Shown piece by piece: positions 31,868 through 45,129 of a stretch of DNA of 45,129 nt; the stretch's first letter is position 1; each line of letters starts with the position of its first letter. The stretch comes from Xanthobacteraceae bacterium. GTDB lineage: Bacteria; Pseudomonadota; Alphaproteobacteria; Rhizobiales; Xanthobacteraceae. The notes beneath the pieces were generated by a model. The model was not told where the DNA came from and did no database searches. It was given only the letters and a program-made list of their open reading frames with translations. The position numbers and the translations under genes are program-made. Where the stretch lies: positions 1-45,129 of the forward strand of contig JASHOR010000138.1 of the NCBI GenBank assembly GCA_030041005.1, read 5' to 3'.

Positions 31868-33187
31868 ATGGTCGAAACATTCGAATCCGCTCTGCAGGTC
31901 CGCGTCGATGAAATGGTCGATGCCTGCACCCGTTGCGGCAAGTGCGTGGAGGCTTGCCCGACCACCGGGCCCGCCGGATTGACGGTAGAAGAGCAGAAAA
32001 ACCCGGTGGCGGTGATTGGCGGCATCATCGACATTCTGCGGCTCGGCCCCGGCAACGACGCAGCGCGCAAATGGGCGTCCGGCTGCGTGCGTTCGGGCGA
32101 CTGCATCGAGGCCTGCGAATACGGCGTCAATCCGCGATTCCTGCTCAGCATGGCGCGGGCGGCAATGGCGCGCGCGAAGAACGATGCGGCGACGCTCCGC
32201 CGCGCCGGCGTCGACGGCTTCCGTAAAATCGCGACCGATGTGAACAATCTTTCGCGGCTGCAGCTCGACGATGCATTGTTGGCGCGGCTCGGGCAGGGCG
32301 CTCCACGGTCTGCGGACGTGCCGCCGGATTTCGTCTTCTACACCGGATGCAACGTGCTCAAGACGCCGCATATGGCGCTGCTCGCGCTCGACATCATGGA
32401 TGCGCTCGGAATCACCTACGAGGTCTTGGGCGGTCCGACCCATTGCTGCGGCGTGCAGCAATTGCGCTCCGGCGATCTTGCGACCTTCGGTCGGTTCGCG
32501 GAAAGCTCGCTCGACAAGCTGGCGCGCAGCAAGACCGGCCAAGTGCTGTCCTGGTGTCCGTCCTGCCATGTCCAATTCACCGAAATGACGCTGCCGGCGA
32601 TCGAAAGAACACGTGGCGCAAAACCGTTCGAAATGACGCCGTTCACGTTGTTCGTGCGCAATAATCTCGATCGACTGCGGCCGTTGCTGCGCGAGCCGGT
32701 GCCGATGCGGATCGCCCTGCACAAGCATCCGGGGATTCGCGGCGTCGTCGAAGCCGCCGAGGACATATTGCGCGCGGTGCCGGGCGTCGTGCTTGTCGAT
32801 CTGCAGCAGCCGAAGGCCGGCCTGCAGGCCAACGAGTTGCGGGCGCTGCCGACCTATCGCCGCCAGTCGCAGGAGGCCGAGCTGCGCGCGGCGGAAGCGG
32901 CCGGCATCGATGCGCTGGTCGCGGTCTATCATTCCGATCACCGCGAGCTTTGCGCGCACGAGCGCGACTGGCCGTTCCGCATCTTGAATCTGTACGAGAT
33001 CGTCGGCGCCAGCATGGGGCTGCATCGCGACGATCGATTCAAGCAAATGAAATTGATGCAGGACGCCGACGCCGTTCTGGCCGACTGCCGCGACCTGATG
33101 AACGATCACGGGCTCGACCCCGCGACGGCGCGGCAGGTCATTCAATCAATGCTCGACGAGCAGCCGGTGCCGTTGCGCGGCGGTTGA
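31868..33187 (+). CDS. 4Fe-4S/CCG-domain Fe-S oxidoreductase (HdrC/GlpC-like)
   Basis: A 439-residue protein with a ferredoxin-like N-terminus and a CCG domain. Cys 20, 23, 26 and 30 (CTRCGKCVEAC) form a full [4Fe-4S] motif. The second motif is incomplete: C73, C79 and C83 are present but position 76 is Ser (CVRSGDCIEAC). The CCG domain (CNVLK, then THCCGVQ, then SWCPSCHVQF) is complete. The second CCG repeat seen in HdrB/GlpC-type proteins is replaced by a cysteine-free segment (HKHPGIRG to LQQPKAGLQ). Such proteins pass electrons to quinone or to flavoprotein partners. It is divergent from the CoxL-like gene, with 146 bp between, and preceded by GGGGGGAAG. A link to that enzyme as electron acceptor is possible but unproven. 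Confidence 0.85.
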   Translation: MVETFESALQVRVDEMVDACTRCGKCVEACPTTGPAGLTVEEQKNPVAVIGGIIDILRLGPGNDAARKWASGCVRSGDCIEACEYGVNPRFLLSMARAAMARAKNDAATLRRAGVDGFRKIATDVNNLSRLQLDDALLARLGQGAPRSADVPPDFVFYTGCNVLKTPHMALLALDIMDALGITYEVLGGPTHCCGVQQLRSGDLATFGRFAESSLDKLARSKTGQVLSWCPSCHVQFTEMTLPAIERTRGAKPFEMTPFTLFVRNNLDRLRPLLREPVPMRIALHKHPGIRGVVEAAEDILRAVPGVVLVDLQQPKAGLQANELRALPTYRRQSQEAELRAAEAAGIDALVAVYHSDHRELCAHERDWPFRILNLYEIVGASMGLHRDDRFKQMKLMQDADAVLADCRDLMNDHGLDPATARQVIQSMLDEQPVPLRGG

Positions 33188-33436: not shown

Positions 33437-33721
33437 TTACACGCCGCCGATCGGCTCGCCCGCGCGCAGCAAGCCCGTCACCAGCGCTTCGATCCGCGCG
33501 ATGGAGCGAAAATTGGCCGGCCGCATGTCGAGTTCGGGAATGCTGAGGTCGAACTCGGCCTCGACCGCGAGCATAAGATTAACCAAATCGAGCGACGACA
33601 ACCCGCTCTCGCCAAGATCGTCGTGGTTACCGACCGGCCGCTCGATCGAGCGTTTGGCAAGGAGCTCCCGGACGATAGCCAGGACGCGTTCGCTCGCGTC
33701 CGATTTGGTCCGATCTAGCAC
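33437..33721 (-). CDS. Acyl/aminoacyl carrier protein 1
   Basis: A 94-residue carrier protein. The phosphopantetheine-attachment region reads ESGLSSLDLVNLMLAVEAEF, with Ser43 in the place of the DSL serine (here SSL). It has the four-helix acyl carrier pattern and an acidic surface. The GTG at 33721 has GGGGA nearby upstream; a GTG at 33748 would add nine residues. It is divergent from the acyl-CoA-dehydrogenase-like and amino acid:[carrier protein] ligase genes, in the same neighbourhood order as reported pairs of such ligases with small carrier proteins in Bradyrhizobium, as far as I recall. It is therefore the best candidate acceptor for the amino acid activated by that ligase. Confidence 0.85.
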   Translation of the reverse strand: MLDRTKSDASERVLAIVRELLAKRSIERPVGNHDDLGESGLSSLDLVNLMLAVEAEFDLSIPELDMRPANFRSIARIEALVTGLLRAGEPIGGV

Positions 33722-33759
33722 GGTGAATATCCCCAAATTCGCGCGCACGTCACCCGTGC

Positions 33760-33775
33760 TGACGTAATGACATCA
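33760..33775. promoter_or_regulatory. Imperfect palindrome in the divergent carrier protein promoter region
   Basis: TGACGTAATGACATCA matches its own reverse complement at 12 of 16 positions. It lies 39 bp upstream of the carrier protein start, in the 250-bp divergent region with the acyl-CoA-dehydrogenase-like gene. It could be a regulator site; the match is modest, and I see no clear -35/-10 pair for either gene. Confidence 0.2.
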
Positions 33776-33971
33776 TCTCATTAACCGGAGGTGACTCGAA
33801 CCGAATACTTTTTCGGCTGAGCCGCTTTCCCTTGGTAACCTTGACGGAAAAGAACATCGGAAATTTTCGCCAAAGGACACGATGAATTGCAAATTGTGAT
33901 GTAACCCTCGCACCATACGAACGCTGCCGTTACCGACCGCGCGGAAGAACATTCCATCGTGAGGCAGACCC

Positions 33972-35231
33972 ATGAATATTCACACTGCGACGATTGCGGG
34001 CGCTTCCAAGGACCTTCGTCTTCTTGAGGCCGCGCGTGGCGGCCAGCGTGCCGTCAATTTCGCAGAGACAACCGACACGGCCGAACTACGCGCGCGCGTC
34101 GATAAAGTCGCCGCCGTAGCCGCCGCCCATGCCAAGGCTGTCGACGCCGGCTCGCGGTTTCCGCACGAGGCGATCGGGGCGGCGCGCGCCGAGGCGCTCA
34201 TGAGCATCGGCGTGCCGCGCGAATTTGGCGGCGAGGGCGCCGGCGTCGCGGAGATTGCCGATGTCTGTTATTCGCTTGGTCGCGTGTGCGCGTCCACAGC
34301 CATGATCTATGCGATGCATCAGACCAAGGTTGCGTGTCTGGTCCGCCACGGGCGCGCCAGTTCCTGGCACCGGCTTTTGCTGCGGCGGCTCTGCGCGGAG
34401 CAGATGCTGCTGGCATCCTCGACCACGGAGGGCCAATCCGGCGGCGATTTGCGCAATAGCGCGGCCGCCGTCGACGGGGAGCAGCGGATCACGCTTGATC
34501 GGCAGGCGACCGTCATCTCGTATGGCGAACAGGCCGACGGCATCGTCACCACGGCGCGTCGCGCGGCCGAGGCGGCCAGTTCGGACCAGGTGCTGATCGT
34601 CTTTCTCAAGGAGAATTACACGCTCGAACGTCTCAACGGCTGGGACGCGTTCGGCATGCGCGGCACGTGCAGCGAGGGATTCAAGCTCGTTGCGTCCGGG
34701 TTGCGCGAACAGATCCTGCCGGCAAGTTACGAGAAGATTCACGGCCATACCATGATGCCGTTTGCGCACATTGCCTGGAGCAGTGCGTGGGCGGGTATTG
34801 CGGCCGCCGCCGCCGAACGTGCCCGCGCTTTCGTACGCAAGGCTGCGCACCGCTCCGGCGGCACGTTGCCCCCGGGCGCCGATCATCTGACCCGATCGAC
34901 TGCCACCTTGCGTACGCTGCGCGGCCTCATTGCCACTGCAATCCGGCGTTTTGAAGCGGCGTCCGCCGACCCGGCAGCGCTCGAATCCGTGGACTTTCAA
35001 ACCGGCATGAACCTGCTCAAGGTCAATGCGTCGGAGCTTGCGGTGTCCACCGTCCTTTCCGCCATGCAGGCCTGCGGGCTCTCGGGTTACCGCAACGACA
35101 GCGAATTCAGTGTCGGCCGGCACCTGCGCGACATTCTGTCGTCGCCGATCATGATCAGCAACGATCGCATCCTTGCCAACATGGCGTCGCCGTCGCTGCT
35201 GGCGAGCATTCCGACATCGTTGTGCGATTAA
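33972..35231 (+). CDS. Acyl-CoA-dehydrogenase-fold flavoprotein without the usual catalytic Glu
   Basis: A 419-residue acyl-CoA-dehydrogenase-like protein with the N-terminal helical domain (LRARVDKVAAVAAAHAKAVDAGSRFPHEAI), the middle beta domain (LASSTTEGQSGGDLRNS) and the C-terminal helices. In dehydrogenases the catalytic Glu lies in a Y-E-G-T-x-E-I stretch after the RD pair; here that place reads RDILSSPIMISNDRI, with Ile395 where Glu would be. This tail resembles flavin hydroxylases of the same fold (DszC-like) and the homologues found beside amino acid:[carrier protein] ligases. It precedes the ligase gene by 79 bp on the same strand, so it may act on the carrier-bound amino acid or acyl group by oxidation or hydroxylation. 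Confidence 0.85.
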   Translation: MNIHTATIAGASKDLRLLEAARGGQRAVNFAETTDTAELRARVDKVAAVAAAHAKAVDAGSRFPHEAIGAARAEALMSIGVPREFGGEGAGVAEIADVCYSLGRVCASTAMIYAMHQTKVACLVRHGRASSWHRLLLRRLCAEQMLLASSTTEGQSGGDLRNSAAAVDGEQRITLDRQATVISYGEQADGIVTTARRAAEAASSDQVLIVFLKENYTLERLNGWDAFGMRGTCSEGFKLVASGLREQILPASYEKIHGHTMMPFAHIAWSSAWAGIAAAAAERARAFVRKAAHRSGGTLPPGADHLTRSTATLRTLRGLIATAIRRFEAASADPAALESVDFQTGMNLLKVNASELAVSTVLSAMQACGLSGYRNDSEFSVGRHLRDILSSPIMISNDRILANMASPSLLASIPTSLCD

Positions 35232-35310
35232 CCGCGCCGCAGCGCGGACGACATACAGAATAAGGACGGAAAGCGAGGCGGCAAACCGCAAGGCAGGAGG
35301 CGTTGTTCCA

Positions 35311-36234
35311 ATGAATGTTGCGTTCAAACAACCGGTCCACTCGACACCCACGCTCGATTCCATCGCCGAGGCGCTGCTGCTGCCATCCGGCATCGATGGC
35401 GTCTACGCGCGCACTGCGGCGTTCGAGCAGATCGTCGGCGGCCTTACCGATCTGATCTCGGAGTATCGCGGGCCGGCAACGGAAGTGCTGCGTTTTCCGC
35501 CGGTCATGAGCCGCCGGCAAGTGGAGAAGTCCGGCTACCTCAAGAGCTTTCCGCATTTTCTCGGTTGCGTAAGCTGTCTTTCCGGAGAGGAAGTGGAGAT
35601 CAGGGCGGCCGTTGATCGTCACGAGGCGGGCGAGGACTGGACGCCGGCACTGGCGCCTGCCGATCTCGTCCTGAGCCCCGCGGCCTGCTATCCGGTCTAC
35701 CCGCTGGCAGCGAGCCGCGGTCAAATTCCGGCCGGCGGGCTTGTGTTCGATGTCGCTTGCGACTGTTTCCGTCGCGAGCCGTCGAAAATGCTCGACCGGC
35801 TGCAATCGTTCCGCATGCGCGAATACGTTTGCATCGGCACGCCGGCCGAGGTCGACGTTTTCCGCCGCCGCTGGATGAAAACGGCGGAGGATTTTGCCGG
35901 ACGGTTGGGCCTGAGCTGGCACATCGACTACGCCAGCGATCCATTCTTCGGCCGTGGCGGCAAGCTCATGGCGGTAAGCCAGATCGAGCAGGCGCTCAAG
36001 TTCGAGCTGCTGATTCCGGTGCACTCCGCCGACAAGCCGACCGCCTGCATGAGTTTCAATTGCCACCGCGACCATTTCGGCACGACGTGGAATATCCGCA
36101 CGTCCGACGGCGAAGTGGCGCATACCGGCTGCGTCGCCTTCGGCATCGATCGTCTGGCCTTGGCGCTTTTTGCGACGCACGGTCTCGAATTGTCGCGCTG
36201 GCCGGCAGCGGTGCGGAAGTCCCTGGCGCTTTGA
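35311..36234 (+). CDS. Amino acid:[carrier protein] ligase, class II aminoacyl-tRNA synthetase homologue
   Basis: A 307-residue homologue of the seryl-tRNA-synthetase catalytic core without a tRNA-binding arm. Motif 2 is visible as DCFRREPSKMLDRLQSF (151-167, with R154/R155/E156) and MREYVCIG; motif 3 as HTGCVAFGIDRLALALF (271-287). C126 (SPAACYPVYPL), E171 (MREYV) and C274 (TGCVAFG) match, with a constant offset of five, the Cys-Glu-Cys zinc site reported for the Bradyrhizobium ligase Bll0957, which loads glycine or alanine onto the phosphopantetheine of a small carrier protein. The ATG at 35311 is preceded by AGGAGG with a 12-base gap. The carrier partner is probably the protein encoded at 33437-33721. 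Confidence 0.92.
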   Translation: MNVAFKQPVHSTPTLDSIAEALLLPSGIDGVYARTAAFEQIVGGLTDLISEYRGPATEVLRFPPVMSRRQVEKSGYLKSFPHFLGCVSCLSGEEVEIRAAVDRHEAGEDWTPALAPADLVLSPAACYPVYPLAASRGQIPAGGLVFDVACDCFRREPSKMLDRLQSFRMREYVCIGTPAEVDVFRRRWMKTAEDFAGRLGLSWHIDYASDPFFGRGGKLMAVSQIEQALKFELLIPVHSADKPTACMSFNCHRDHFGTTWNIRTSDGEVAHTGCVAFGIDRLALALFATHGLELSRWPAAVRKSLAL

Positions 36235-36293
36235 AATATGAGCCGGCCGCGAGCGGCGGCAAGAGCGGCACTGAATTCCAGCTCGACTTGGTC

Positions 36294-36391
36294 GTCATTG
36301 CGACCCCGAGCGCAGCGAGGGGGAAGCAATCCAGTTCAGCACAAAGAATCGTGGATTGCTTCGTCGCCCCTTCGGGACTCCTCGAAATGAC
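36294..36391. repeat. REP-like long inverted repeat
   Basis: A 98-bp palindrome between two convergent genes. The left arm (36294-36333) runs GTCATTGCGACCCCGAGCGC onward to GGGGAAGCAATCCA; the right arm (36352-36391) runs TGGATTGCTTCGTCGCCCCT onward to CGAAATGAC. Paired CGTCATTGCGA/AAGCAATCCA palindromes are common dispersed repeats in Hyphomicrobiales, from memory. It may also end transcription from both sides. Confidence 0.75.
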
Positions 36392-36403
36392 GGCATGCCC
36401 GGT

Positions 36404-37282
36404 CTAGACACCCATGACCGCATATTCGGTGTAGGCGAGATCGCCGAGGCGCGGCCGTTGCGGGCCCTTGAAATATTTCGGCATGCGGCCGCGGCGGAAC
36501 GTGCCGAGGAGGCCCGGTATCGGGCCGTTGGCGTCGAGGACGACGAACGGCCTGCCGCGCACGGCGAGAAACCGTCCGATCGGGCCAGCGAAGCGCACGA
36601 AATCGTCCACGTCCCGGCAATAGATCAGTTGGGTGTATGGAATCAGGTTCTTTGCCAGGCGGGGGCGGAAGACGAAAGGATAAGCGCGCTCGGCCGTCGC
36701 GCACCACAACGCGATGCAGCCGTGCGCCGCATGCTGCTGCAGGATTTCCTGATCGAAGTGTTCGAAGCTGACGGTCGGCGGCTTGCGCGCGTCGAGCAGT
36801 TTCACGCCGGGACTGCCGAGCAAGCCGCTCAACAGCGGGATGGAAACGAATACGCCGTCGCTGTAGCGCGAGAAGCCTTGCGCCTCGATGATCGGCCAAG
36901 TGTGCGGCGCCGGCGAAATGTTGAGATAGGTCACGTCCTTGTGCGAAAGCGCGCGGGAGACGAGCAGCGGGGCATAAATTCGAAACGCCGGCTGCACGTA
37001 CCAGCTTGAGAGATTGCACCGCCTGATAAGCTTCTCGCCGTCGTGCAGCGTCGAGCAGATGAGCAGGATGGCGCCGACCGGACCGTTTGCACTCTCCAGG
37101 AGGTAACCGTAGCGCGGCAGGCCGGCCGGCGGCTGCCGCTCCGCGAGCTGCGCCATCGCATCCGCCCAGAACGGCCTCTGGCGAGCGGGAAATCCACCGG
37201 TGAGCAAGTCCGTAACGGCGGGAACGTCTGCATCGGTGATTTGGCGGCAACGGATGGCCGGCACGGGAGCAACCATTGGCAT
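36404..37282 (-). CDS. GNAT-like acyltransferase
   Basis: A protein of about 292 residues. The N-terminal half (IRCRQITDADVPAVTDLLTGGF, then GYLLESANGPVGAILLICS) has the strand-helix pattern of GNAT acyltransferases, and the C-terminal half (ALWCATAERAYPFVFRPRL) may be a second, degenerate GNAT-like unit. The assignment is from fold pattern only. Starts at 37282 (ATG), 37276 (ATG) and 37348 (TTG) are possible; none has a strong ribosome site, and ATG 37282 is chosen because the TTG frame runs into the divergent promoter. It is convergent with the ligase gene and divergent from carrier protein 2. It could join the carrier-bound acyl and aminoacyl groups. Confidence 0.75.
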   Translation of the reverse strand: MPMVAPVPAIRCRQITDADVPAVTDLLTGGFPARQRPFWADAMAQLAERQPPAGLPRYGYLLESANGPVGAILLICSTLHDGEKLIRRCNLSSWYVQPAFRIYAPLLVSRALSHKDVTYLNISPAPHTWPIIEAQGFSRYSDGVFVSIPLLSGLLGSPGVKLLDARKPPTVSFEHFDQEILQQHAAHGCIALWCATAERAYPFVFRPRLAKNLIPYTQLIYCRDVDDFVRFAGPIGRFLAVRGRPFVVLDANGPIPGLLGTFRRGRMPKYFKGPQRPRLGDLAYTEYAVMGV

Positions 37283-37304
37283 TGACCACGACAATGTTGT
37301 GAAC

Positions 37305-37332
37305 TTGATCGTAAGTGTTGCGCGAATATACC
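37305..37332 (+). promoter_or_regulatory. Candidate promoter of carrier protein 2 operon
   Basis: TTGATC (37305-37310) and TATACC (37327-37332) are spaced by 16 bp and point at the carrier protein gene starting 35 bp further on. The divergent region is only 84 bp long, so this promoter would overlap that of the GNAT-like gene. The layout fits sigma-70 but is not strong. Confidence 0.4.
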
Positions 37333-37366
37333 GGGGCCAAATGAACAAACAGTAGGGTTCGCGGTA

Positions 37367-37612
37367 ATGTCGATAAAATTAACCATACTTGAGCAAATGA
37401 CGCAGGTTGCGCGCGAGCAGGGGCGGACGCTGGCGCCGCTGCGCGATGATCTTGCGCTGCTGGATTCCGGCCTCGATTCTCTCGGCATTGCCGTATTGGT
37501 TGCGCGCCTCGAGGACAGGCTGGGGACCGATCCGTTCACGAATTCCGAAGACGTCCACTTCCCGGTGACGCTCGGGGATTTCGTGAAGGCGTACGAAAAT
37601 GGCGCTCCCTGA
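37367..37612 (+). CDS. Acyl carrier protein 2
   Basis: An 81-residue carrier protein. The phosphopantetheine serine is Ser38 in LLDSGLDSLGIAVLVARLED, a canonical DSL motif, unlike SSL in carrier protein 1. The four-helix pattern is complete. Its gene overlaps the following adenylate-forming ligase gene by 14 bp, which argues that the ligase loads this carrier. The ATG is at 37367, with AGGG about ten bases upstream. Confidence 0.92.
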   Translation: MSIKLTILEQMTQVAREQGRTLAPLRDDLALLDSGLDSLGIAVLVARLEDRLGTDPFTNSEDVHFPVTLGDFVKAYENGAP

Positions 37613-38981
37613 GGCGCTGTCGCTGCGCCGGCACGTCGCCGAGACACAGGCGGATCGCTTTCTGTTTGATCGCGCGGCGCGCATACGCATCGCCGACCTG
37701 GTCCGCGGCACCAGCCTTGACGGCGATCCGACGGCGTTGCACGGCCGCTCGGTACTGATTGCGACCGCGAGCCAGTTGACCAGCGCCCTGACGCTGATCG
37801 AGCTTGACGGAAACGCCCGCCGGCTCACCATTTTGCCGCCCGACATCGATGGCGCGCATCTTGGAGCGTTGATCGCCGATGCCGGGATCGATGCGGTGGT
37901 GACCGACGGCGAGACCCCGCACGGCCTTCATGACATACCACTGCACGTCGCCTGCATGCCGAAAGTCGTGCCGATCGATCGCGGCCGGCCGGAGCACGTG
38001 CGAACCGAATGGGTCCTGCTGACCTCCGGCACCACGGGCGTGCCGAAAATGGTCGTGCACAGCCTCACCAGCCTGACGGCAGCGATTGCGCCACGCGCCG
38101 ATTCCGATCCGCTCGTGTGGGGCACATTCTATGACATTCGTCGCTACGGCGGCCTTCAGATCTTCCTGCGAGCGATGCTCGGCGGGGCATCGCTCGTGCT
38201 GTCGAGCGCCGGCGAACCGGTCGCCGAGCACCTTTTGCGGCTGGCGCGGCATGGCGTAACCCATCTCTCCGGCACGCCGTCGCACTGGCGGCGCGCGCTG
38301 ATGGCGTCCGCGATCGGTAGTATTTCGCCGCGCTATGTCCGGCTGTCGGGGGAAATCGCCGATCAGGCAATTCTCGACAATCTGCGCGCCGCCTTCCCGC
38401 AGGCAGCGATCGGTCATGCTTACGCTTCGACGGAAGCCGGCGTGGGCTTTGCCGTCGATGACGGGCTCGCAGGCTTTCCCGCCTCCTACCTTGAGGGTGG
38501 GTGCGGCGCCACTGAGATCAAGATTGTCGAGGGTTCGCTGCGCATGCGGTCGGCGGCGCTCGCCGCGCGCTACGCGGGCGCCCGTGGCGCTTCGCTTCGC
38601 GACAGCGACGGTTTTGTCGATACCGGTGACATGGTCGAGCGCCGCGGCGATCGGTATTTTTTCGTCGGCCGCAAGGGCGGCATCATCAATATCGGCGGCT
38701 TGAAGGTTCACCCTGAGGAAATCGAAGCGGTCATCACCCGGCACCCGCAGGTCCGCATGTGCCTGGTGCGTTCGAGGTCCAGTCCTGTCACCGGCGCGCT
38801 TGTCGTCGCCGATGTCGTCCTGAAACCGACGTGTGTACGCGAGGAGGGACGGGCGCAAGTCAAGGACGAGATACTGGAACTCTGCCGCGGTGCATTGGCC
38901 CGGCACAAGGTTCCAGCGTCGATCGCCTTCGTACCGGAGCTTGCCGTCGCCGCCACCGGCAAGCTGGCGCGTCTGAGTTGA
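37599..38981 (+). CDS. Adenylate-forming acyl ligase (AMP-binding), probably loads carrier protein 2
   Basis: A 460-residue class I adenylate-forming enzyme, short for the family (usually 500-550). The P-loop-like motif TSGTTGVPK is at 142-150, the adenine region at YASTEAG, the hinge region at FVDTGDM and RKGGIINIGGLKVHPEEIE, and the catalytic lysine is K455 in ATGKLARL near the end. The N-terminal domain is reduced. The acid it activates cannot be read: it could be a fatty, aromatic or amino acid. The 14-bp overlap with carrier protein 2 suggests transfer of the acyl group to that carrier. The next gene, a ketoreductase, starts 4 bp after its stop. Confidence 0.9.
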   Translation: MALPEALSLRRHVAETQADRFLFDRAARIRIADLVRGTSLDGDPTALHGRSVLIATASQLTSALTLIELDGNARRLTILPPDIDGAHLGALIADAGIDAVVTDGETPHGLHDIPLHVACMPKVVPIDRGRPEHVRTEWVLLTSGTTGVPKMVVHSLTSLTAAIAPRADSDPLVWGTFYDIRRYGGLQIFLRAMLGGASLVLSSAGEPVAEHLLRLARHGVTHLSGTPSHWRRALMASAIGSISPRYVRLSGEIADQAILDNLRAAFPQAAIGHAYASTEAGVGFAVDDGLAGFPASYLEGGCGATEIKIVEGSLRMRSAALAARYAGARGASLRDSDGFVDTGDMVERRGDRYFFVGRKGGIINIGGLKVHPEEIEAVITRHPQVRMCLVRSRSSPVTGALVVADVVLKPTCVREEGRAQVKDEILELCRGALARHKVPASIAFVPELAVAATGKLARLS

Positions 38982-38985
38982 TCCG

Positions 38986-39756
38986 ATGACCGCGACGAAG
39001 ACCGCTCCCGCGACTGACGGCGTGCGCAATGTTCTCGTCACCGGCGCCAGTCGCGGCCTCGGGCTTGGCATCGCCCGCAAATTAAGCGAGGCCGGCTACC
39101 AGGTGATCGCGGTTGCGCGCAGCAAAAGCAAAGCAGTGACCGAGGCGATGGCCGAAGCCAGGCGCGGCAATCACGGTCATCTGCACTTCGCACCGTTCGA
39201 TCTCGGCAATATCGGCGAACTTCCCGACCTGGTGCGAAATCTACGCCAGGAATTCGGTCCCCTCTACGGCCTCGTCAACAATGCCGCGATCGGCCACGAC
39301 GGCGCGTTGGCGATGATGCACAATGCGCGGATCGAAGAACTGGTGCGGCTCAACACGCTCTCGCCCATCGTGCTCACCAAGTACGTCGTGCGCTCGATGA
39401 TGTCGCAAGGCGTCGGCCGCATCGTCAACGTCGCCTCGATTATCGGCTTCACCGGCTATAGCGGGTTGTCCGCCTATGCGGCCACGAAAGCCTCGATGAT
39501 CGGTTTTACCCGGTCGCTGGCGCGCGAGGTCGGTCGGGTCGGCATCAACGTCAATGCCGTGGCGCCAGGCTTTCTGGAGACCGAGATGACGCACGGCCTT
39601 GCCGGCGAACAGCGGCAGCGCGTGATACGCCGCAGCGCATTGCGGCGGCTGGCGGAGGTGGAGGATGTGGCCAGCGCCGTCGAATATCTGCTCGGCGACA
39701 ACGCCCGCAACATCTCCGGCACCGTGATTACGGTGGACGCCGGCGCGACCGCCTAG
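38986..39756 (+). CDS. Short-chain dehydrogenase/reductase, FabG-like
   Basis: A 256-residue classical SDR. The cofactor loop TGASRGLGLG is at 19-28, NNAA is present, the catalytic Ser151 is in NVASIIGFTGYSG, and Y164 and K168 lie in YAATK. The C-terminus ISGTVITVDAGATA is typical of FabG-like 3-oxoacyl-ACP reductases. It starts 4 bp after the ligase gene and is the third gene of the carrier-protein operon, so a carrier-bound beta-keto group or an amino-acid-derived ketone is a likely substrate. The exact reaction is unknown. Confidence 0.92.
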   Translation: MTATKTAPATDGVRNVLVTGASRGLGLGIARKLSEAGYQVIAVARSKSKAVTEAMAEARRGNHGHLHFAPFDLGNIGELPDLVRNLRQEFGPLYGLVNNAAIGHDGALAMMHNARIEELVRLNTLSPIVLTKYVVRSMMSQGVGRIVNVASIIGFTGYSGLSAYAATKASMIGFTRSLAREVGRVGINVNAVAPGFLETEMTHGLAGEQRQRVIRRSALRRLAEVEDVASAVEYLLGDNARNISGTVITVDAGATA

Positions 39757-39908
39757 CGTGGCGGTTCAGAAGTCCGCATCATTTCTGCCGCGACCTCGTC
39801 TGTCCGTCCCGCCGTCCGCCTCGGCGCTGGGCCGGCCCGCGGCCCCGCGTATGGTAGATTATCCGCTGATGATCGTTTCCCCACCGCTCCGAACGGAGCC
39901 CCTGCCGT

Positions 39909-42089
39909 ATGCCCGAGCAGGGTAGCGCCTGGAACCATGCCGTTGAAACCTGGAAGAAACCCATGAAGCTTTTGAGCCTCGCCGTTGCTCTTTTCGGCCT
40001 CGCCGCGCTGGCGCAGCCCGTCGTGCTGCATATGAATTTCGCCGCGGCGTTTCTTGGCATCGTTGCCCTGGTCAGTGCCGCAACAACGTTCCGCTCGACC
40101 GCCATATCGAGCTTTCTCAAGATCTTTGTCGGTATCTTTTCGACGGAGACGGTCGTGTTCGGAATTCCCGTCCTGATTTCGCGGGCGGGCTATTGGCCGA
40201 GAGCCTTCGCCGGAAATCCGCCGCCCGAATCCCTGCCGCTTACGGTCGCGATCTTCTCGATCCTGGTTTACGCGGTGGCGCAACTGCGCACCGTCGGGCA
40301 GATCACGCGCATCGCCGACCGCTATTTCAATGCCGGAGAGACCAATCGCGCGCGCATCTGGCCGTTCCCCTCTTTCGCGGCGAGGGAACGCCGCATCGCC
40401 GTCGCCATGGTCGTTTTCCTCGTTCTCATCAACCAGGGCGAAGTCGGAATCATCGTGCGGCTGAACTTCTTCAACCGCGCCTGGTTCGACGCCATACAAA
40501 ACCGCGACGAGGTGGCGTTCTGGACGCAGCTTCTGCTCGTCTTCACGCCCTACGCCTTCATCTATGTGGCGATGAGCGTCGTCGAGTTTTTCGTCCAATC
40601 GATGCTGGTCGTGCGCTGGCGTACCTGGCTCACCGACCATTTCGTCTCGCGTTGGCTCGGGCTGCACAACCATTACCGGATCAGCCTTCTTTCCGGTCAG
40701 ACCGACAACCCAGACCAGCGCATTTCCGAAGATATTTTTCGCTTCATCAACGGCGGCTCCGACGGCTCCAATAGCGCCTACGGACTGTACGACTTTTCGA
40801 TTCTATTGATCTCGACCGTCACCACGCTCGTGTCGTTCTCGATCGTGCTATGGACGCTGTCAGCGTCCTTCACGCTGCCCTTCACCGAGATTATCTTCCC
40901 CGGCTTTCTGTTCTGGGTCGCCGTGATCTATGCCGCGACCGGGACGCTGATTACGCATCTGATCGGCCGCCCGCTGATCCGTCTCTATTTTGTGCGCCAG
41001 CACATGGAAGCCGATTTCCGCTTCTCGCTGGCGCGGCTCCGCGAATATACCGAGCAGGTCGCGCTGCTGGGCGGAGAGGGCGCCGAGAAGGAAATCCTCG
41101 GCCAGCGCTTTACGGCGCTGATCGCCAATTATGTTGCCGTCATCTTTCGGCGGATGCGGGTTACTGCGTTCACGGCAACGTTCGGCCAGTTGTCGCCGAT
41201 CATCCCTTTCATTTTCACCGCGCCATTCTACTTCGCACGCAAGATCCAACTCGGCACCATGACCCAGACCGCCGGCGCCTTCGGGCAGGTGTCCAATTCG
41301 CTGACGTTCTTCGTCAACTACTACACCTACCTCGCCGGGTTTAAGTCGGTGGTCGATCGATTGAATTCGTTCGATACGGCGATCGACGAAGCGGAGGCGC
41401 TGCGCGACGCGGGCCCGGAGCGCGTCGTCGCTGCAGCGGGAGTGTCCTCGCTCGATCTCGACGATCTCGCTCTCGCTCTACCGGACGGACGGCATGTCGT
41501 CGAAGTCAAGCATCTCAAGCTCAAGGGCGCCGAGAGCGTCGCGGTTTCCGGCCCTTCGGGCTCCGGTAAATCGACGCTGTTTCGGGCCATTGCGGGAATC
41601 TGGCCATATGGCAAGGGGCGCATCAGCAAACCGCAAGACCTCAGCGTCATGGTGTTGCCCCCCAAGCCCTACATACCCATCGGCACGCTGCGATCCGCCG
41701 TCACCTATCCGGCGGTGGCTGGCACCTATCGCGATGAGGAAATCCGCGCCGCGCTCATCGACGCCCAACTGGGCGATCTTGCGGGCGAGCTCGACCGCGA
41801 AGAAGTATGGTCGCAGCGCCTGTCGAGCGGAGAGCTGCAGCGCCTGGCGTTGGCTCGCGCCCTGCTCACGCGTCCCGACTGGCTCTTGCTCGACGAATCG
41901 ACGTCCGCGGTGGAGGAAGCGCTGGAAGCGGAGCTTTACGCCATGCTGGCGCGGCGGCTGCCGAACACCACCATCGTCTCGATCGGCCACCGCTCGACGC
42001 TGGCGGAACTGCACCGCCGTCGTCTCGAAATGACACCGGAAGGCGATCACTTCGCGCTGCGTGATGCGCTCGAGGCGGCCGCCGAATGA
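39909..42089 (+). CDS. SbmA/BacA-like ABC transporter with fused ATPase (YddA/BclA type)
   Basis: A 726-residue half-transporter of the SbmA/BacA family with its own ATPase. The membrane part (about 20-450) has the SbmA_BacA pattern: FFNRAWFDAIQNRDE, then RWRTWLTDHFVSRWLG, NPDQRISEDIFRFINGG and TFFVNYYTYLAGFKSVVDRL. The ATPase has Walker A GPSGSGKS near 548-555, signature RLSSGELQRLALARALL and Walker B WLLLDESTSAVEE. Relatives take up peptide antibiotics, bleomycin or symbiotic NCR peptides (BclA of Bradyrhizobium), but a transporter at the end of a biosynthetic operon may equally move the product. It is 152 bp after the ketoreductase gene. A later start at 39963 is also possible. Confidence 0.92.
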   Translation: MPEQGSAWNHAVETWKKPMKLLSLAVALFGLAALAQPVVLHMNFAAAFLGIVALVSAATTFRSTAISSFLKIFVGIFSTETVVFGIPVLISRAGYWPRAFAGNPPPESLPLTVAIFSILVYAVAQLRTVGQITRIADRYFNAGETNRARIWPFPSFAARERRIAVAMVVFLVLINQGEVGIIVRLNFFNRAWFDAIQNRDEVAFWTQLLLVFTPYAFIYVAMSVVEFFVQSMLVVRWRTWLTDHFVSRWLGLHNHYRISLLSGQTDNPDQRISEDIFRFINGGSDGSNSAYGLYDFSILLISTVTTLVSFSIVLWTLSASFTLPFTEIIFPGFLFWVAVIYAATGTLITHLIGRPLIRLYFVRQHMEADFRFSLARLREYTEQVALLGGEGAEKEILGQRFTALIANYVAVIFRRMRVTAFTATFGQLSPIIPFIFTAPFYFARKIQLGTMTQTAGAFGQVSNSLTFFVNYYTYLAGFKSVVDRLNSFDTAIDEAEALRDAGPERVVAAAGVSSLDLDDLALALPDGRHVVEVKHLKLKGAESVAVSGPSGSGKSTLFRAIAGIWPYGKGRISKPQDLSVMVLPPKPYIPIGTLRSAVTYPAVAGTYRDEEIRAALIDAQLGDLAGELDREEVWSQRLSSGELQRLALARALLTRPDWLLLDESTSAVEEALEAELYAMLARRLPNTTIVSIGHRSTLAELHRRRLEMTPEGDHFALRDALEAAAE

Positions 42090-42111: not shown

Positions 42112-43932
42112 CTAAAGGCGCATCGCCCCCGATTGAATACGCTGGTAGAGCGCGTTGTCGACGCGGACGAACGCTTGCTGCGCCGGGTCGTCGAAATAGA
42201 CGACATCGGGCGAGGCCGCAGGATTGTATCCCTCGTGCTTGAGGTCGTTCTTCTTGTGCTTGAATGTCGCCGTCAGCTCGATGCGATCCTTGATCCGCAA
42301 GAACAATGGCTGCGCATAAGGCGGCAAAAGCAGCGCGAGATGGCGGCGGAAGGCAATGAAATCGAGCGCTCTGTCGAGCACCAGCGTGGCCATGCCGGCC
42401 GCGCCCTCGGTTCCCGGCACGGCGACGCCGTACACCGTCGCCTCCGCCACGCCGGGAAACGTCGCGATTGCTGCCGCCACCTCGGAGGCAGCCACGTTCT
42501 CGCCCTTCCAGCGAAAGGTGTCGCCCACCCGGTCAACGAAATAGTAGAAGCCGCTCGCGTCCTTGCGCATCAGATCGCCGGTGCGATACCAGGCATCGCC
42601 GGGCTGGAAAACGTCGCGCAGGATCTTGCGCTCGGAATCCCCGGCGCTGGTGTAGCCTTCGAACGCCGCGCCCGATTGCCTGGCGCCGCCGCCGATCCGG
42701 CCGATCGCCTCCCCGATTTCGTCGCTTGAACACCGGATGCAAAAGCCGTCGGCACCGCGCGCCGGTTCGCCCGCTTCGCTGTCGAATCGCACCAGCGCCA
42801 GCGGAAAGCGATGATCCAGGAACGACGGCACGCGGCCGATCGCGCCGACCGCGCCCTCGACGTTATAGAGCGAGACGTTGGCTTCGGTCGCGGCATAGAA
42901 TTCCAGGATCCTGGGGATAGAGAAGCGCTGCTGGAATTGCCGCCAGACCTCGGCGCTGAGGCCGTTTCCGCAGGCCAATCGCAGCCGGTGCTCGCGCTCG
43001 TGCGGACCGGCCTGTGCCTTCACCAGGTAGCGGCACAGTTCACCGATATATTGAAACAGCGTGCAGTCCCATCGGCTCACGTCTTCCCAGAAATTCTGCG
43101 CGGAAAACCTCTCGCGCAGCACGACCGAACCGCCGCTCACCAGCAATGCGCCGGGCGCGACGACGCCGCCGACGGAGTGGTACATCGGCAGACAATCGTA
43201 CATGCGATCGTCCGGCCCGGCGTTCATCAAGCCGGCGAACCAGAAGCTCCATTGCATCAGCCGATGGTGACTGACATTGGCGGCCTTCGGCAGGCCGGTC
43301 GTTCCCGACGTGTAGATCAACAGCGCGCGATCGGCGACGGTCACGCCGCGACGCTCGGCGGGCGAAAGATTCTTTGCAGAATACTGTTCGATCTGGCGGT
43401 CGATGCGGAGAAATCCGCTGTCGCCGTCGGCGCCGTGCATCCAGAGTGTCGGCCGAACCGAAAGGTGCGCGCTTGCCGAGCCGAACGCGTCGTCCATTTC
43501 CGTGGCGACGATGACGTGCTTGGGCGCCGCAACCTCGATGCAATGTGCGAGCGCCGGCCCGCGCAGATTGGTGTTGATGAGCGCAACGGCGACGCCAGCG
43601 GCGCTGATGCCGAGCCAGATCGCCATGTATTCGGGACGATTCGGCATCAACAGCGCCACCGTATCGCCCTTGGCGAGGTTCTGGTCGAGCGCCCAGCGGG
43701 CATAACGGGCGGTTCGCTCCGCGAGCCCGCGATAGGTCAAGCGTTCGCGCCTGGAGAGCAGTGCCGCAACGTCGCCGCGGGACGCGGCCAACTCCTCGAT
43801 CACGCAGGGCAGCACGCGCTGCGGATTGCGCGCGATCGGGGCGGTGGCCTCCAGCGCGCGCACCCAGTCGCGCAGCGCGCTCTCCTTGCCGCCGATGCGA
43901 CGGGTATCGGATTCCGGGTCGAGCAGGGCCAT
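42112..43932 (-). CDS. Long-chain/very-long-chain acyl-CoA synthetase-like
   Basis: A 606-residue adenylate-forming enzyme of the FATP/VLACS type (long-chain-acyl-CoA synthetase). The P-loop-like motif is LIYTSGTTGLPKAANVSHH. Other family segments are CLPMYHSVGG, FYAATEANVSLYN, YRTGDLMRKDASGFYYFVDRVGDTFRWKGENVAASEV and LRIKDRIELTATFKHKKNDL, where the lysine of TFKHKK is expected to be catalytic. It activates fatty or branched acids to acyl-CoA at the membrane. It converges with the SbmA-like transporter gene (22 bp apart) and is divergent from the O-acetylhomoserine sulfhydrylase gene. ATG 43932 is preferred to a TTG at 43953. It might supply acyl-CoA to the GNAT-like enzyme, but that is a guess. 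Confidence 0.92.
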   Translation of the reverse strand: MALLDPESDTRRIGGKESALRDWVRALEATAPIARNPQRVLPCVIEELAASRGDVAALLSRRERLTYRGLAERTARYARWALDQNLAKGDTVALLMPNRPEYMAIWLGISAAGVAVALINTNLRGPALAHCIEVAAPKHVIVATEMDDAFGSASAHLSVRPTLWMHGADGDSGFLRIDRQIEQYSAKNLSPAERRGVTVADRALLIYTSGTTGLPKAANVSHHRLMQWSFWFAGLMNAGPDDRMYDCLPMYHSVGGVVAPGALLVSGGSVVLRERFSAQNFWEDVSRWDCTLFQYIGELCRYLVKAQAGPHEREHRLRLACGNGLSAEVWRQFQQRFSIPRILEFYAATEANVSLYNVEGAVGAIGRVPSFLDHRFPLALVRFDSEAGEPARGADGFCIRCSSDEIGEAIGRIGGGARQSGAAFEGYTSAGDSERKILRDVFQPGDAWYRTGDLMRKDASGFYYFVDRVGDTFRWKGENVAASEVAAAIATFPGVAEATVYGVAVPGTEGAAGMATLVLDRALDFIAFRRHLALLLPPYAQPLFLRIKDRIELTATFKHKKNDLKHEGYNPAASPDVVYFDDPAQQAFVRVDNALYQRIQSGAMRL

Positions 43933-44040
43933 CGTTCGATCTTCGTCCGACAACGTGAAATTTTTCGCTTCGACATTGCATAAAATTGGAACTTTTCGCT
44001 CGATGGCACGCGACGGTGCAAAGGTGCCGCTCGGCGCGTG

Positions 44041-44162: not shown

Positions 44163-45129
44163 ATGAGACGCGAAACGCTGGCCGTCCACGGCGGCTATGA
44201 AACCGATCCAACGACAAAGTCGGTCGCGGTACCGATCTATCAAACTGTGGCTTACGAATTCGACAGCGCCGATCATGGCGCGGCCCTGTTCAACCTCGAA
44301 GCCGAGGGTTTTCGCTACAGCCGGATCAGCAATCCGACCACCAAGGTGCTCGAAAGCCGCGTCGCTGCGCTCGAGGGCGGCCTCGATGCCTTGTGCGTCA
44401 GCACCGGGCAGGCCGCGCTCAATTATGCGATGCTCAATCTGGCGGAGCTGGGCAGCAACATCGTTTCAGTGCCGCAGCTCTACGGCACCACGTACACGCT
44501 GTTCGCACATATCCTGCCGGGGCAGGGGATTTCCGTGCGCTTTGCCGAATCGGATCATCCCGACGCCATCGAGAAGCTGATCGACGAACGCACGCGCGCG
44601 GTTTTCTGCGAAAGCGTCGGCAATCCGGCCGGCAATATATGCGACATCGAAGCGCTGGCCGCGGTCGGCGCGCGACATGGCGTTCCGCTCGTCGTCGACA
44701 ATACCGTGGCGACGCCTTTCATGCTGCGCCCGATCGAATACGGCGCCGACATCGTCGTGCATTCGCTGACCAAGTTTTTGGGCGGCCACGGAACTACGCT
44801 CGGCGGCGCTGTCGTCGACAGCGGCCGCTTCCCCTGGAAGGCACAGGCGCGGCGCTTCCCCAGGTTCAGCGAGCCCGACGCGTCCTATCACGGCATGATC
44901 TATACCGAGCATTTCGGCGAGGGTGCCTACATCGCGCGCTGCCGCAGCGTGCAGCAACGAACCACCGGTGCGGTGATCTCGCCGCTGGCGGCGTTCCTGC
45001 TGCTGCAAGGCATCGAGACGGTGGCGCTGCGCGTCGAGCGACACGTCGAGAACGCGCGCCGCGTCGCCGAATTCCTGCGCTTTGACGCGCGGGTCGCCTG
45101 GGTCAATTACACGGGCTTTCCCGACAATC
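44163..45129 (+). CDS. O-acetylhomoserine sulfhydrylase-like, 3'-truncated
   Basis: The first 322 codons of a Cys/Met-metabolism PLP enzyme; the frame is open to the end of the window. It begins with RRETLAVHGGYETDPTTKSVAVPIYQTVAYEF, the opening of O-acetylhomoserine aminocarboxypropyltransferase (MetY). The PLP lysine is K204 in VVHSLTKFLGGHG and D179 in VVDNTVATPF contacts the ring. MetY forms homocysteine from O-acetylhomoserine and sulfide in methionine synthesis; cystathionine-type activities are alternatives in this family. The ATG has GGGGAAG just upstream. About 100 residues of the usual 430 are missing beyond the window edge. Confidence 0.93.
   Translation, partial: MRRETLAVHGGYETDPTTKSVAVPIYQTVAYEFDSADHGAALFNLEAEGFRYSRISNPTTKVLESRVAALEGGLDALCVSTGQAALNYAMLNLAELGSNIVSVPQLYGTTYTLFAHILPGQGISVRFAESDHPDAIEKLIDERTRAVFCESVGNPAGNICDIEALAAVGARHGVPLVVDNTVATPFMLRPIEYGADIVVHSLTKFLGGHGTTLGGAVVDSGRFPWKAQARRFPRFSEPDASYHGMIYTEHFGEGAYIARCRSVQQRTTGAVISPLAAFLLLQGIETVALRVERHVENARRVAEFLRFDARVAWVNYTGFPDN

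What the first reader, a model, noticed from the sequence alone, without database searches (positions are those of the whole stretch)
33437..42089. Candidate biosynthetic cluster built on an amino acid:[carrier protein] ligase
In the sequence, an aminoacyl-tRNA-synthetase homologue with the family zinc-site residues (C126, E171, C274) lies among two carrier proteins, an acyl-CoA-dehydrogenase-fold enzyme, a GNAT-like acyltransferase, an adenylate-forming ligase, a ketoreductase and an SbmA/BacA-like transporter. Known work on this ligase family shows that it loads glycine or alanine on a small carrier protein, but products downstream are, to my knowledge, not described. Inference: carrier 1 holds an amino acid, carrier 2 an acyl group, and the GNAT-like enzyme joins them into a small acyl-amino acid or amide.
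Basis: partly seen in the sequence, partly recalled or inferred. Interest (0 to 1): 0.85.

Follow-up and report, generated by a model that had tools for sequence, protein, structure and literature searches.

The report
Glycine-on-carrier-protein pathway with unknown product
A soil bacterium carries a linked set of genes that probably load an amino acid, and a second acid, onto two small carrier proteins; related genomes tend to keep or lose the set together, which makes the still unknown purpose of this enzyme family testable.

Summary
The ligase is about two-thirds identical to Bradyrhizobium Bll0957 (amino acid:[carrier protein] ligase), and carrier 1 best matches the carrier co-crystallised with Bll0957. 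Ligase, ACAD-fold enzyme and carrier 1 form a conserved triad (ACAD beside the ligase in 58 of 59 loci). The ligase family splits into two fully supported clades. In all 26 mapped type B loci (Atu2573 kind) DUF1839 and a GH2-like glycosidase lie alongside. None of 24 type A genomes (this window's kind) has DUF1839; all 24 encode the GNAT-like protein and the adenylating ligase with carrier 2, even where these lie elsewhere in the genome. For type B, a 2010 note already predicted ligation of an amino acid to a cell-surface sugar. New here is the type A variant: a probable transferase swap plus a second carrier module. The product is unknown; a surface-glycan or lipid decoration is my best guess, at no better than even odds.

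The parts
33437..33748 (-). CP1: carrier protein, aminoacyl carrier (partner of the ligase)
   Evidence: PF00550 30.6 bits; best PDB match 4h2s_C 'Aminoacyl carrier protein 1' E 1.4e-13; Ser52 kept in 50 of 50 aligned
33972..35231 (+). ACAD: acyl-CoA-dehydrogenase-fold flavoenzyme; predicted to oxidise the carrier-bound aminoacyl group
   Evidence: PF02771/PF00441; beside the ligase on the same strand in 58 of 59 loci, median gap 62 bp; usual Glu position is Ile395 in 60 of 60
35308..36234 (+). aaRS-type amino acid:[carrier protein] ligase
   Evidence: NF005479 452.6 bits; Bll0957 PDB 3mey/4h2s E 2.8e-132; C127/E172/C275 kept
36404..37282 (-). GNATL: GNAT-like acyl/aminoacyl transferase candidate (the ORF can start as far up as 37348; homologues fit a start near 37282)
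   Evidence: alignment A1, PF00583 in 3 of 16 members, Foldseek hits mostly to GNAT proteins; present in 24 of 24 type A genomes
37367..37612 (+). CP2: second carrier protein
   Evidence: PF00550 25 bits; near AMPL in 38 of 38 loci, median gap 8 bp; Ser38 kept in 40 of 40 aligned
37599..38981 (+). AMPL: adenylate-forming ligase, presumed loader of CP2; its start overlaps the end of CP2
   Evidence: PF00501/PF13193; Lys455 in 37 of 37 aligned; in 24 of 24 type A genomes
38986..39756 (+). KR: SDR ketoreductase
   Evidence: PF00106 176 bits; Tyr164/Lys168 in 37 of 37 aligned; near AMPL in 37 of 38 loci, the miss being cut by the end of the stretch
42112..43953 (-).
   Evidence: NF006134 748 bits; within 10 kb of AMPL in 30 of 38 loci, among them the detached loci of 9 g23 genomes
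39909..42089 (+). SbmA/BacA-like transmembrane half with ABC ATPase; local passenger or lineage-specific transporter, not a core part
   Evidence: PF06472, PF05992, PF00005; near AMPL in only 6 of 38 loci, the window and five of its genus

Best explanation
A two-carrier pathway, the 'type A' variant of the amino acid:[carrier protein] ligase systems. Step 1 (by homology): the ligase adenylates glycine, perhaps alanine, and loads it on CP1. Step 2 (inferred): the ACAD-fold flavoenzyme oxidises the carrier-bound aminoacyl group at the Calpha-N bond or at N; it is probably not an ordinary alpha,beta-desaturase. Step 3 (inferred): AMPL loads a second acid on CP2 and KR reduces it, with FACL supplying an activated acyl group. 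Step 4 (inferred): the GNAT-like enzyme makes an amide bond, taking the place that the papain-like DUF1839 protein holds in the sister 'type B' systems, and so attaches the (acyl-)aminoacyl unit to an amine, most likely on a sugar or lipid of the cell surface.
For: Triad: ACAD beside the ligase in 58 of 59 loci, CP1 within 3 kb in 49 of 59 (of the 10 others five are cut by contig ends, and two have a CP1-family ORF by clustering). CP1 and ligase match two chains of the same PDB entries, 4h2s-4h2v. Two ligase clades, 100/100 support, 62 rows. DUF1839 occurs in 64 of 397 genomes, all 64 with a non-type-A ligase; GNATL (E<1e-50) and AMPL occur in 24 of 24 type A genomes; at the 24 AMPL loci CP2 is present in 24 and KR in 23. 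In genus g23 four genomes without the ligase also lack GNATL and AMPL; in g71 three with only a distant ligase homologue lack both; in g92 four genomes have type A with AMPL and three have type B with DUF1839 and no AMPL. DUF1839 is papain-like, as is the domain of BtrH, an ACP:aminoglycoside acyltransferase (PMC10318531, passages). Type B loci have a GH2-like protein in 26 of 26 mapped. Polysaccharide families in 13 of 50 ligase loci against 1 of 36 random stretches. No CP2 was found in the 26 type B loci, so ACAD most simply acts on CP1 cargo. AzsF/Tri22, annotated as acyl-CoA dehydrogenases, dehydrogenate carrier-bound hydrazinoacetyl (PMC10445470, passages). The orthologues bll0957 and bll0958 are expressed and both rise in a phaR mutant (PMC10888616, table passage).
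Against: No step is shown by experiment in this organism. The glycan link comes mainly from type B: polysaccharide families were met in 4 of 24 type A and 9 of 26 type B loci, and that test is partly circular because its queries came from loci around the ligase or GNATL. I identified no polysaccharide gene in the window, but scanned only ten of its proteins (31.9-44.0 kb) and did not examine 1-29 kb. 'GNAT' rests on weak similarity. GNATL and AMPL also occur in G279 (type B ligase with DUF1839) and G212 (no ligase), and AMPL-like genes in G322 and G393. In G413 triad, GNATL and AMPL are on three different contigs, and in G220 GNATL lies away from both. Weaker GNATL homologues (E 4e-49 to 2e-5) occur in 24 more genomes, with and without ligases. 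The closest solved ACAD relative, 7p98, has Thr rather than Glu at the usual catalytic position (alignment) and is still named an acyl-CoA dehydrogenase, so missing Glu there alone does not exclude dehydrogenation. DUF1839 and GNATL being exchangeable is inferred from position and distribution only.
Confidence: 0.45

Rival explanations
1. Aminolipid pathway: GNATL N-acylates glycine (from CP1 or free) with a 3-hydroxyacyl group made by KR on CP2 or with FACL-made acyl-CoA, giving a glycine lipid in the manner of OlsB/GlsB.
For: GNAT-like enzyme, carrier, ketoreductase and a long-chain acyl-CoA synthetase in one set; a review (PMC11631085, passages) describes OlsB-like N-acyltransferases, acyl-ACP as one form of activated fatty acid, and glycine lipids in Bacteroides.
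Against: A dedicated aminoacyl carrier would be hard to explain if free amino acid is used (that OlsB/GlsB use free amino acids is recalled); no O-acyltransferase was noticed in the set, though not all neighbours were scanned; no FACL or AMPL homologue was met in the 26 type B loci; no Pfam/NCBIfam hit of GNATL to such a model.
Confidence: 0.2
2. Free small acyl-amino acid or amide, carried by the BacA-like ABC protein.
For: Two carriers, two ligases and a GNAT-like enzyme together; [quoted passage not shown] 2011 seen, in the reference list of PMC11631085).
Against: Transporter near AMPL in 6 of 38 loci only, the window and five of its genus; sister type B carries a GH2-like glycosidase and in some loci polysaccharide genes.
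Confidence: 0.2
3. Two separate pathways that only sit side by side here: the triad (CP1, ACAD, ligase) and the GNATL/CP2/AMPL/KR set.
For: The triad and AMPL are apart or on different contigs in 13 of 24 type A genomes; the second set occurs without a type A ligase in G212 and G279.
Against: 24 of 24 type A genomes have both (Fisher p about 1e-34, not corrected for relatedness); co-absence in four g23 genomes; GNATL sits with the triad and away from AMPL in 9 of 10 g23 genomes but with AMPL and away from the triad in G242, G066 and G171, so it ties the two.
Confidence: 0.12

Closest known systems
Bradyrhizobium Bll0957 / aminoacyl carrier protein 1 (amino acid--[acyl-carrier-protein] ligase 1, PDB 3mey, 4h2s-4h2v)
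   Same: Ligase matched over residues 15-307 at E 2.8e-132, about two-thirds identical by eye (not counted); carrier 1 is the best solved match of CP1.
   Different: Different organism; ligase and carrier are in solved structures, but for the rest of the pathway I found no described product (review PMC9437257: biological role unknown, passages).
Agrobacterium Atu2573 type systems (type B): ligase, carrier, ACAD, DUF1839, GH2-like glycosidase
   Same: Same triad; predicted in 2010 to ligate an amino acid to an amino group of a cell-surface sugar (PMC2922099, note in proof, passages). That the paper's Atu2574 is the DUF1839 protein is my inference; the locus tag Atu2573 for the ligase is recalled.
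   Different: DUF1839 and the glycosidase are replaced in type A by GNATL, CP2, AMPL, KR and mostly FACL; the ligases form a separate clade.
Exosortase-A-associated modules with a TIGR03098 ligase and a TIGR03099 decarboxylase
   Same: Distant GNATL relatives (24-31% identity, in the 8 of 9 loci where blastp labelled them) lie beside a FACL-like ligase and an Orn/DAP decarboxylase family; a carrier ORF was called in 4 of the 9. Of those scanned, two ligases score 567 and 568 bits to TIGR03098 and two decarboxylases 441 and 419 bits to TIGR03099.
   Different: No aaRS-type ligase beside them in the maps; a PLP decarboxylase in the place of the ketoreductase; the scores lie under the curated cut-offs (592 and 478).
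Prolyl-carrier oxidation modules (adenylating enzyme, carrier, ACAD; PltF/PltL/PltE, RedW, PigA)
   Same: Same logic of an amino acid on a carrier oxidised by an ACAD-fold flavoenzyme; weak partial hits of ACAD to PigA (40 bits) and RedW (30 bits).
   Different: aaRS-type ligase instead of an ANL ligase; glycine/alanine rather than proline; no glutamate at the usual catalytic place. The Plt comparison is recalled.

Membership tests
amino acid:[carrier protein] ligase (NF005479, Bll0957 kind) | Score over the curated equivalog cut-off | tested here: met
   452.6 bits, cut-off 357
amino acid:[carrier protein] ligase (NF005479, Bll0957 kind) | Cys-Glu-Cys zinc site of atypical SerRS-like enzymes | tested here: met
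amino acid:[carrier protein] ligase (NF005479, Bll0957 kind) | No tRNA-binding domain; short catalytic core | tested here: met
   308 aa; matches only about positions 306-504 of the 518-position serine--tRNA ligase models
amino acid:[carrier protein] ligase (NF005479, Bll0957 kind) | Loads glycine or alanine on the neighbouring carrier | not testable with these tools
   Inferred from Bll0957 and its carrier
Type B (Atu2573/DUF1839) surface-sugar aminoacylation system predicted in PMC2922099 | Conserved ORF Atu2574 (DUF1839 in my reading) next to the ligase | tested here: not met
   No DUF1839 match (E <= 0.001) in G000 or any other of the 24 type A genomes
Type B (Atu2573/DUF1839) surface-sugar aminoacylation system predicted in PMC2922099 | GH2-like glycosidase in the cluster | tested here: not met
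   None among the ten window proteins scanned around the ligase; 26 of 26 mapped type B loci have it. The rest of the genome was not searched for it
Acyl-CoA dehydrogenase (catalytic) | Catalytic Glu in the YEGT-like motif | tested here: not met
   Ile395 there in 60 of 60, aligned to Glu of 8i4p; but 7p98, the best solved hit, has Thr there
Acyl-CoA dehydrogenase (catalytic) | Alternative Glu in the isovaleryl-CoA-dehydrogenase position | tested here: inconclusive
   Ala/Ser/Thr/Cys at 265 in 57 of 57; the register to that enzyme is recalled, not aligned by a call
GNAT superfamily | GNAT fold | tested here: inconclusive
   3 of 16 members hit PF00583 at E <= 0.1; Foldseek on a low-confidence model gives mostly GNAT proteins, best E 1.2e-3

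The most novel reading that the evidence does not exclude
The type A pathway makes a chemically new surface decoration. Glycine on a carrier protein is oxidised by a glutamate-less ACAD-fold enzyme at its Calpha-N bond (or N-oxygenated). A GNAT-fold enzyme that uses a carrier protein instead of CoA or tRNA then joins it with a second carrier-bound acid and puts it on a glycan or lipid; a FemX-like reaction with a carrier protein in place of aminoacyl-tRNA.
Probability: 0.2. Interest if true: 0.8.

Novelty: new variant of a known kind. Interest (0 to 1): 0.6.

Why it matters
[quoted passage not shown] This work shows that the family comprises at least two kinds sharing one front end but with different back ends (DUF1839 plus glycosidase, or GNAT-like plus a second carrier module), and it lists a gene set to delete or reconstitute. 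That turns an orphan enzyme of soil and nodule bacteria into a testable pathway, with an unusual ACAD-fold enzyme at its centre.

Tried and rejected
AlphaFold of GNATL and ACAD with shallow alignments (11 and 9 sequences, limited to window and the search for related loci sequences) gave mean pLDDT 52 and 46; the ACAD model was not used, the GNATL model only for its N-terminal half. phmmer and profile searches of GNATL against solved structures found nothing significant. Plasmid records hold no near match to the region. Considered and rejected: transporter as core part; ACAD acting on CP2 cargo (no CP2 met in 26 type B loci); FemAB-, OlsB- or exosortase-acyltransferase identity of GNATL (no such hit).

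Papers: full-text searches were made, of an open-licence library. Of the locus tags searched only PMC10888616, PMC11941606 and PMC2922099 were seen to hold any; DUF1839 was found only in PMC10318531. None of these searches used locus tags of the type A back end (GNATL, AMPL), which I do not know, so its absence from print is only weakly supported. Of all papers cited I saw passages found by term, never a whole text. The PNAS 2010 paper is not held; substrate claims about Bll0957 are from reviews and recall.

Limits of the counts. Genome handles for one search were copied by hand from the printed tables. Type A was set as ligase identity of 57% or more; the tree supports that split (61 loci plus window; one truncated locus, L069, dropped; G167's ligase locus was not fetched). 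Searches scored only the best 6 and 4 candidates per genome, and one search used E <= 1e-60, so an absence means none found at those settings. Relatedness is not corrected for: 10 of the 24 type A genomes are one genus (g23, probably Bradyrhizobium; no call names it). One search required identity thresholds set by me (AMPL 45%, FACL 48%, GNATL 35%, CP2 38%, KR 50%, ACAD 40%, CP1 30%).

The polysaccharide test is weak: its seven query proteins were taken from loci fetched around the ligase, GNATL or AMPL (self hits removed only for the source locus), and three pairs of positive loci come from the same genera (L070/L074, L087/L088, L099/L107). It used 50 of 65 fetched ligase loci; left out were 13 genus contigs, most of them short, L115 and L153. 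Of 40 random stretches drawn I fetched 36: two drawn ones (on G219:C12 and G409:C3) overlapped a ligase locus and were replaced by the second draw of the same contig, and the second draws on G094 and G294 were left out for room.

Full report
What is there. The window lies in a 4.9 Mb draft genome; named contigs with its GNATL gene are Xanthobacteraceae, Hyphomicrobiaceae and Hyphomicrobiales metagenome assemblies. The genes are, in order: CP1 (-), ACAD (+), ligase (+), GNATL (-), CP2 (+), AMPL (+), KR (+), an SbmA/BacA-plus-ABC protein (+) and FACL (-). CP2 and AMPL overlap by 14 bases and 4 bases separate AMPL and KR, so these read as an operon; GNATL is transcribed divergently from it.

The ligase. 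It scores 452.6 bits to NCBIfam NF005479 (cut-off 357) and matches Bll0957 of Bradyrhizobium at E 2.8e-132, about two-thirds identical by eye (not counted; ligases of the g23 genomes are 65-68% identical to the window's). CP1's best solved match is the aminoacyl carrier protein of the same PDB entries, 4h2s-4h2v. Cys127, Glu172 and Cys275 are kept in 60/60, 59/59 and 59/59 aligned sequences. By homology it charges CP1 with glycine or alanine; that was not tested here, and glycine as the main Bll0957 substrate is recalled.

A conserved triad. Over 59 loci with a full ligase, ACAD is beside it on the same strand in 58 (in the miss, L112, ACAD matches fall in two pieces) and CP1 is within 3 kb in 49. 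Of the 10 loci without CP1 there, five (L058, L059, L060, L063, L065) are cut by contig ends (maps) and two (L103, L112) have a small ORF that clusters with CP1; in L089, L091 and L096 none was found.

Two clades with different partners. In 397 genomes of the order the ligase is found in 95. DUF1839 (PF08893) occurs in 64, each of which has a ligase. In all 26 type B loci that I mapped, four of them from outside the order, DUF1839 adjoins the ligase and a GH2-like protein follows (the 27th locus examined, L115, is a distant homologue without these partners). None of the 24 genomes with a window-type ligase has DUF1839. All 24 have GNATL (E<1e-50) and AMPL; at their AMPL loci CP2 is found in 24 and KR in 23, the miss lying at the end of its stretch. 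Outside the 24, GNATL occurs at that level in 2 genomes (G279, G212) and AMPL in 4 (G279, G212, G322, G393); weaker GNATL homologues occur in 24 more. Seven further ligase-positive genomes have neither DUF1839 nor a type A ligase, only distant or partial matches. A tree of 62 ligases separates the two kinds on one branch with 100/100 support. The pattern is not only shared descent: four g23 genomes lacking the ligase also lack GNATL and AMPL, three g71 genomes with only a distant homologue lack both, and genus g92 contains both kinds, four type A with AMPL and three type B with DUF1839 and without AMPL.

One pathway although split. By the coordinates, the triad and AMPL lie within 10 kb in 11 of the 24 type A genomes and are apart or on different contigs in 13. 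In 9 of 10 g23 genomes GNATL stays with the triad and CP2-AMPL-KR-FACL lies elsewhere; in G242, G066 and G171 GNATL is with AMPL instead. Against this bridging, in G413 all three are on different contigs and in G220 GNATL is away from both. Around 38 AMPL genes (24 type A genomes, 12 further genus loci, G279, G212), within 10 kb, CP2 is found in 38, KR in 37, FACL in 30, GNATL in 26, a ligase in 22 and the BacA-like transporter in 6. So FACL probably joins the set and the transporter leaves it.

The ACAD-fold enzyme. Its best solved relatives are acyl-CoA dehydrogenases (7p98, E 2e-14; profile 3.5e-26), with weaker hits to DszC and to 'FAD-dependent oxidoreductase' entries 4kcf and 3m9v (an N-oxygenase by recall). 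Where 8i4p has the Glu of its YEGT motif this family has Ile395 in 60 of 60; position 265, by recalled register the isovaleryl-CoA dehydrogenase base, is Ala, Ser, Thr or Cys in 57 of 57; His266, Trp269 and Trp273 are invariant. A caution: 7p98 has Thr, not Glu, at the first of these places. Glycine has no beta carbon. I therefore infer oxidation at Calpha-N or at N. Precedent: AzsF/Tri22 dehydrogenate carrier-bound hydrazinoacetate (PMC10445470, passages read).

The transferase question. DUF1839 was classed as papain-like with a C(T/S)H triad and a glycan-related context (PMC10318531, passages), and the domain of BtrH, an ACP:aminoglycoside acyltransferase, is papain-like too. GNATL is my candidate for the same step in type A: beside the triad in many loci, and complementary in distribution apart from G279. 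Its GNAT assignment is weak but consistent. Distant GNATL relatives lie beside a ligase and a decarboxylase which, where scanned, come close to the exosortase-A-associated families TIGR03098 and TIGR03099. In 12 of 26 mapped type B loci there is a double alpha/beta hydrolase; the one scanned with NCBIfam (L105) matches TIGR03100 and TIGR03101, exosortase-A hydrolases 1 and 2, at 96 and 74 bits, below their cut-offs. Polysaccharide families were met in 13 of 50 ligase loci (4 of 24 type A, 9 of 26 type B) and 1 of 36 random stretches, p 0.003, a suggestive but partly circular test.

What is known. The 2010 paper PMC2922099 (passages read) predicted, in a note added in proof, that this ligase neighbourhood (carrier, redox enzyme, conserved ORF Atu2574, glycosidase, liposaccharide genes) ligates an amino acid to an amino group of a cell-surface sugar, with Atu2574 as the ligase and the redox enzyme modifying the aminoacyl group, probably by monooxygenation. 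My reading of type B arrived at the same place and is not new. A 2022 review says that the biological role remains unknown (PMC9437257, passages). In B. diazoefficiens, bll0957 and bll0958 both rise in a phaR mutant, as transcripts (3.0-fold each) and proteins (PMC10888616, table passage). I met no paper on the type A back end in the searches, none of which could use its locus tags.

Verdict. The new content is the type A variant, the probable swap of the transferase, the 24-of-24 co-occurrence and the removal of the transporter from the set. The product remains a prediction.

Noticed in passing
window 44163-45129 and L059 9269-11720: An O-acetylhomoserine sulfhydrylase-like gene (family f10), and next to it in relatives a MetA-like gene (f11), follow FACL in many loci; the window's contig ends inside f10. 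Probably conserved synteny rather than pathway.
   Followed up: partly
L070, L074, L084-L086, L090, L138, L140, L146, L147, L153, L178: A thiamine-diphosphate enzyme (PRK08199 subfamily in the one scanned with NCBIfam) lies near GNATL or the triad in these 12 loci; some also have a class IV aminotransferase and a small cupin. Genus locus L073 has the cupin beyond f11, a place that the window does not reach.
   Followed up: partly
L148-L152, L154-L157: Distant GNATL relatives (labelled in 8 of 9 loci) beside a FACL-like ligase and an Orn/DAP-type decarboxylase, in four with a carrier ORF; the scanned ones resemble exosortase-A-associated families TIGR03098 and TIGR03099.
   Followed up: partly
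L115, and G061, G128, G281, G304, G346: A more distant ligase-like family (open frames of about 400-450 aa, 33-36% identity) whose one mapped locus (L115 = G281) shows no CP1, ACAD or DUF1839 match.
   Followed up: no
L075-L078, L080-L082: In these g23 loci the triad plus GNATL lies next to a large protein that in L082 matches GGDEF/EAL phosphodiesterase models (DibA, 468 bits, below cut-off), and near a second protein that looks GGDEF/EAL-like by eye; a possible link with c-di-GMP control.
   Followed up: no
L216 15259-16215: A second DUF1839 match (41% identity, opposite strand) lies about 4 kb from the first in one genome outside the order.
   Followed up: no
window 31868-33187: An Fe-S protein with a CCG domain beside CP1 is kept in several genus loci (L057, L061, L064, L067), in some next to a large xanthine-dehydrogenase-like subunit; apparently an unrelated neighbour.
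   Followed up: partly
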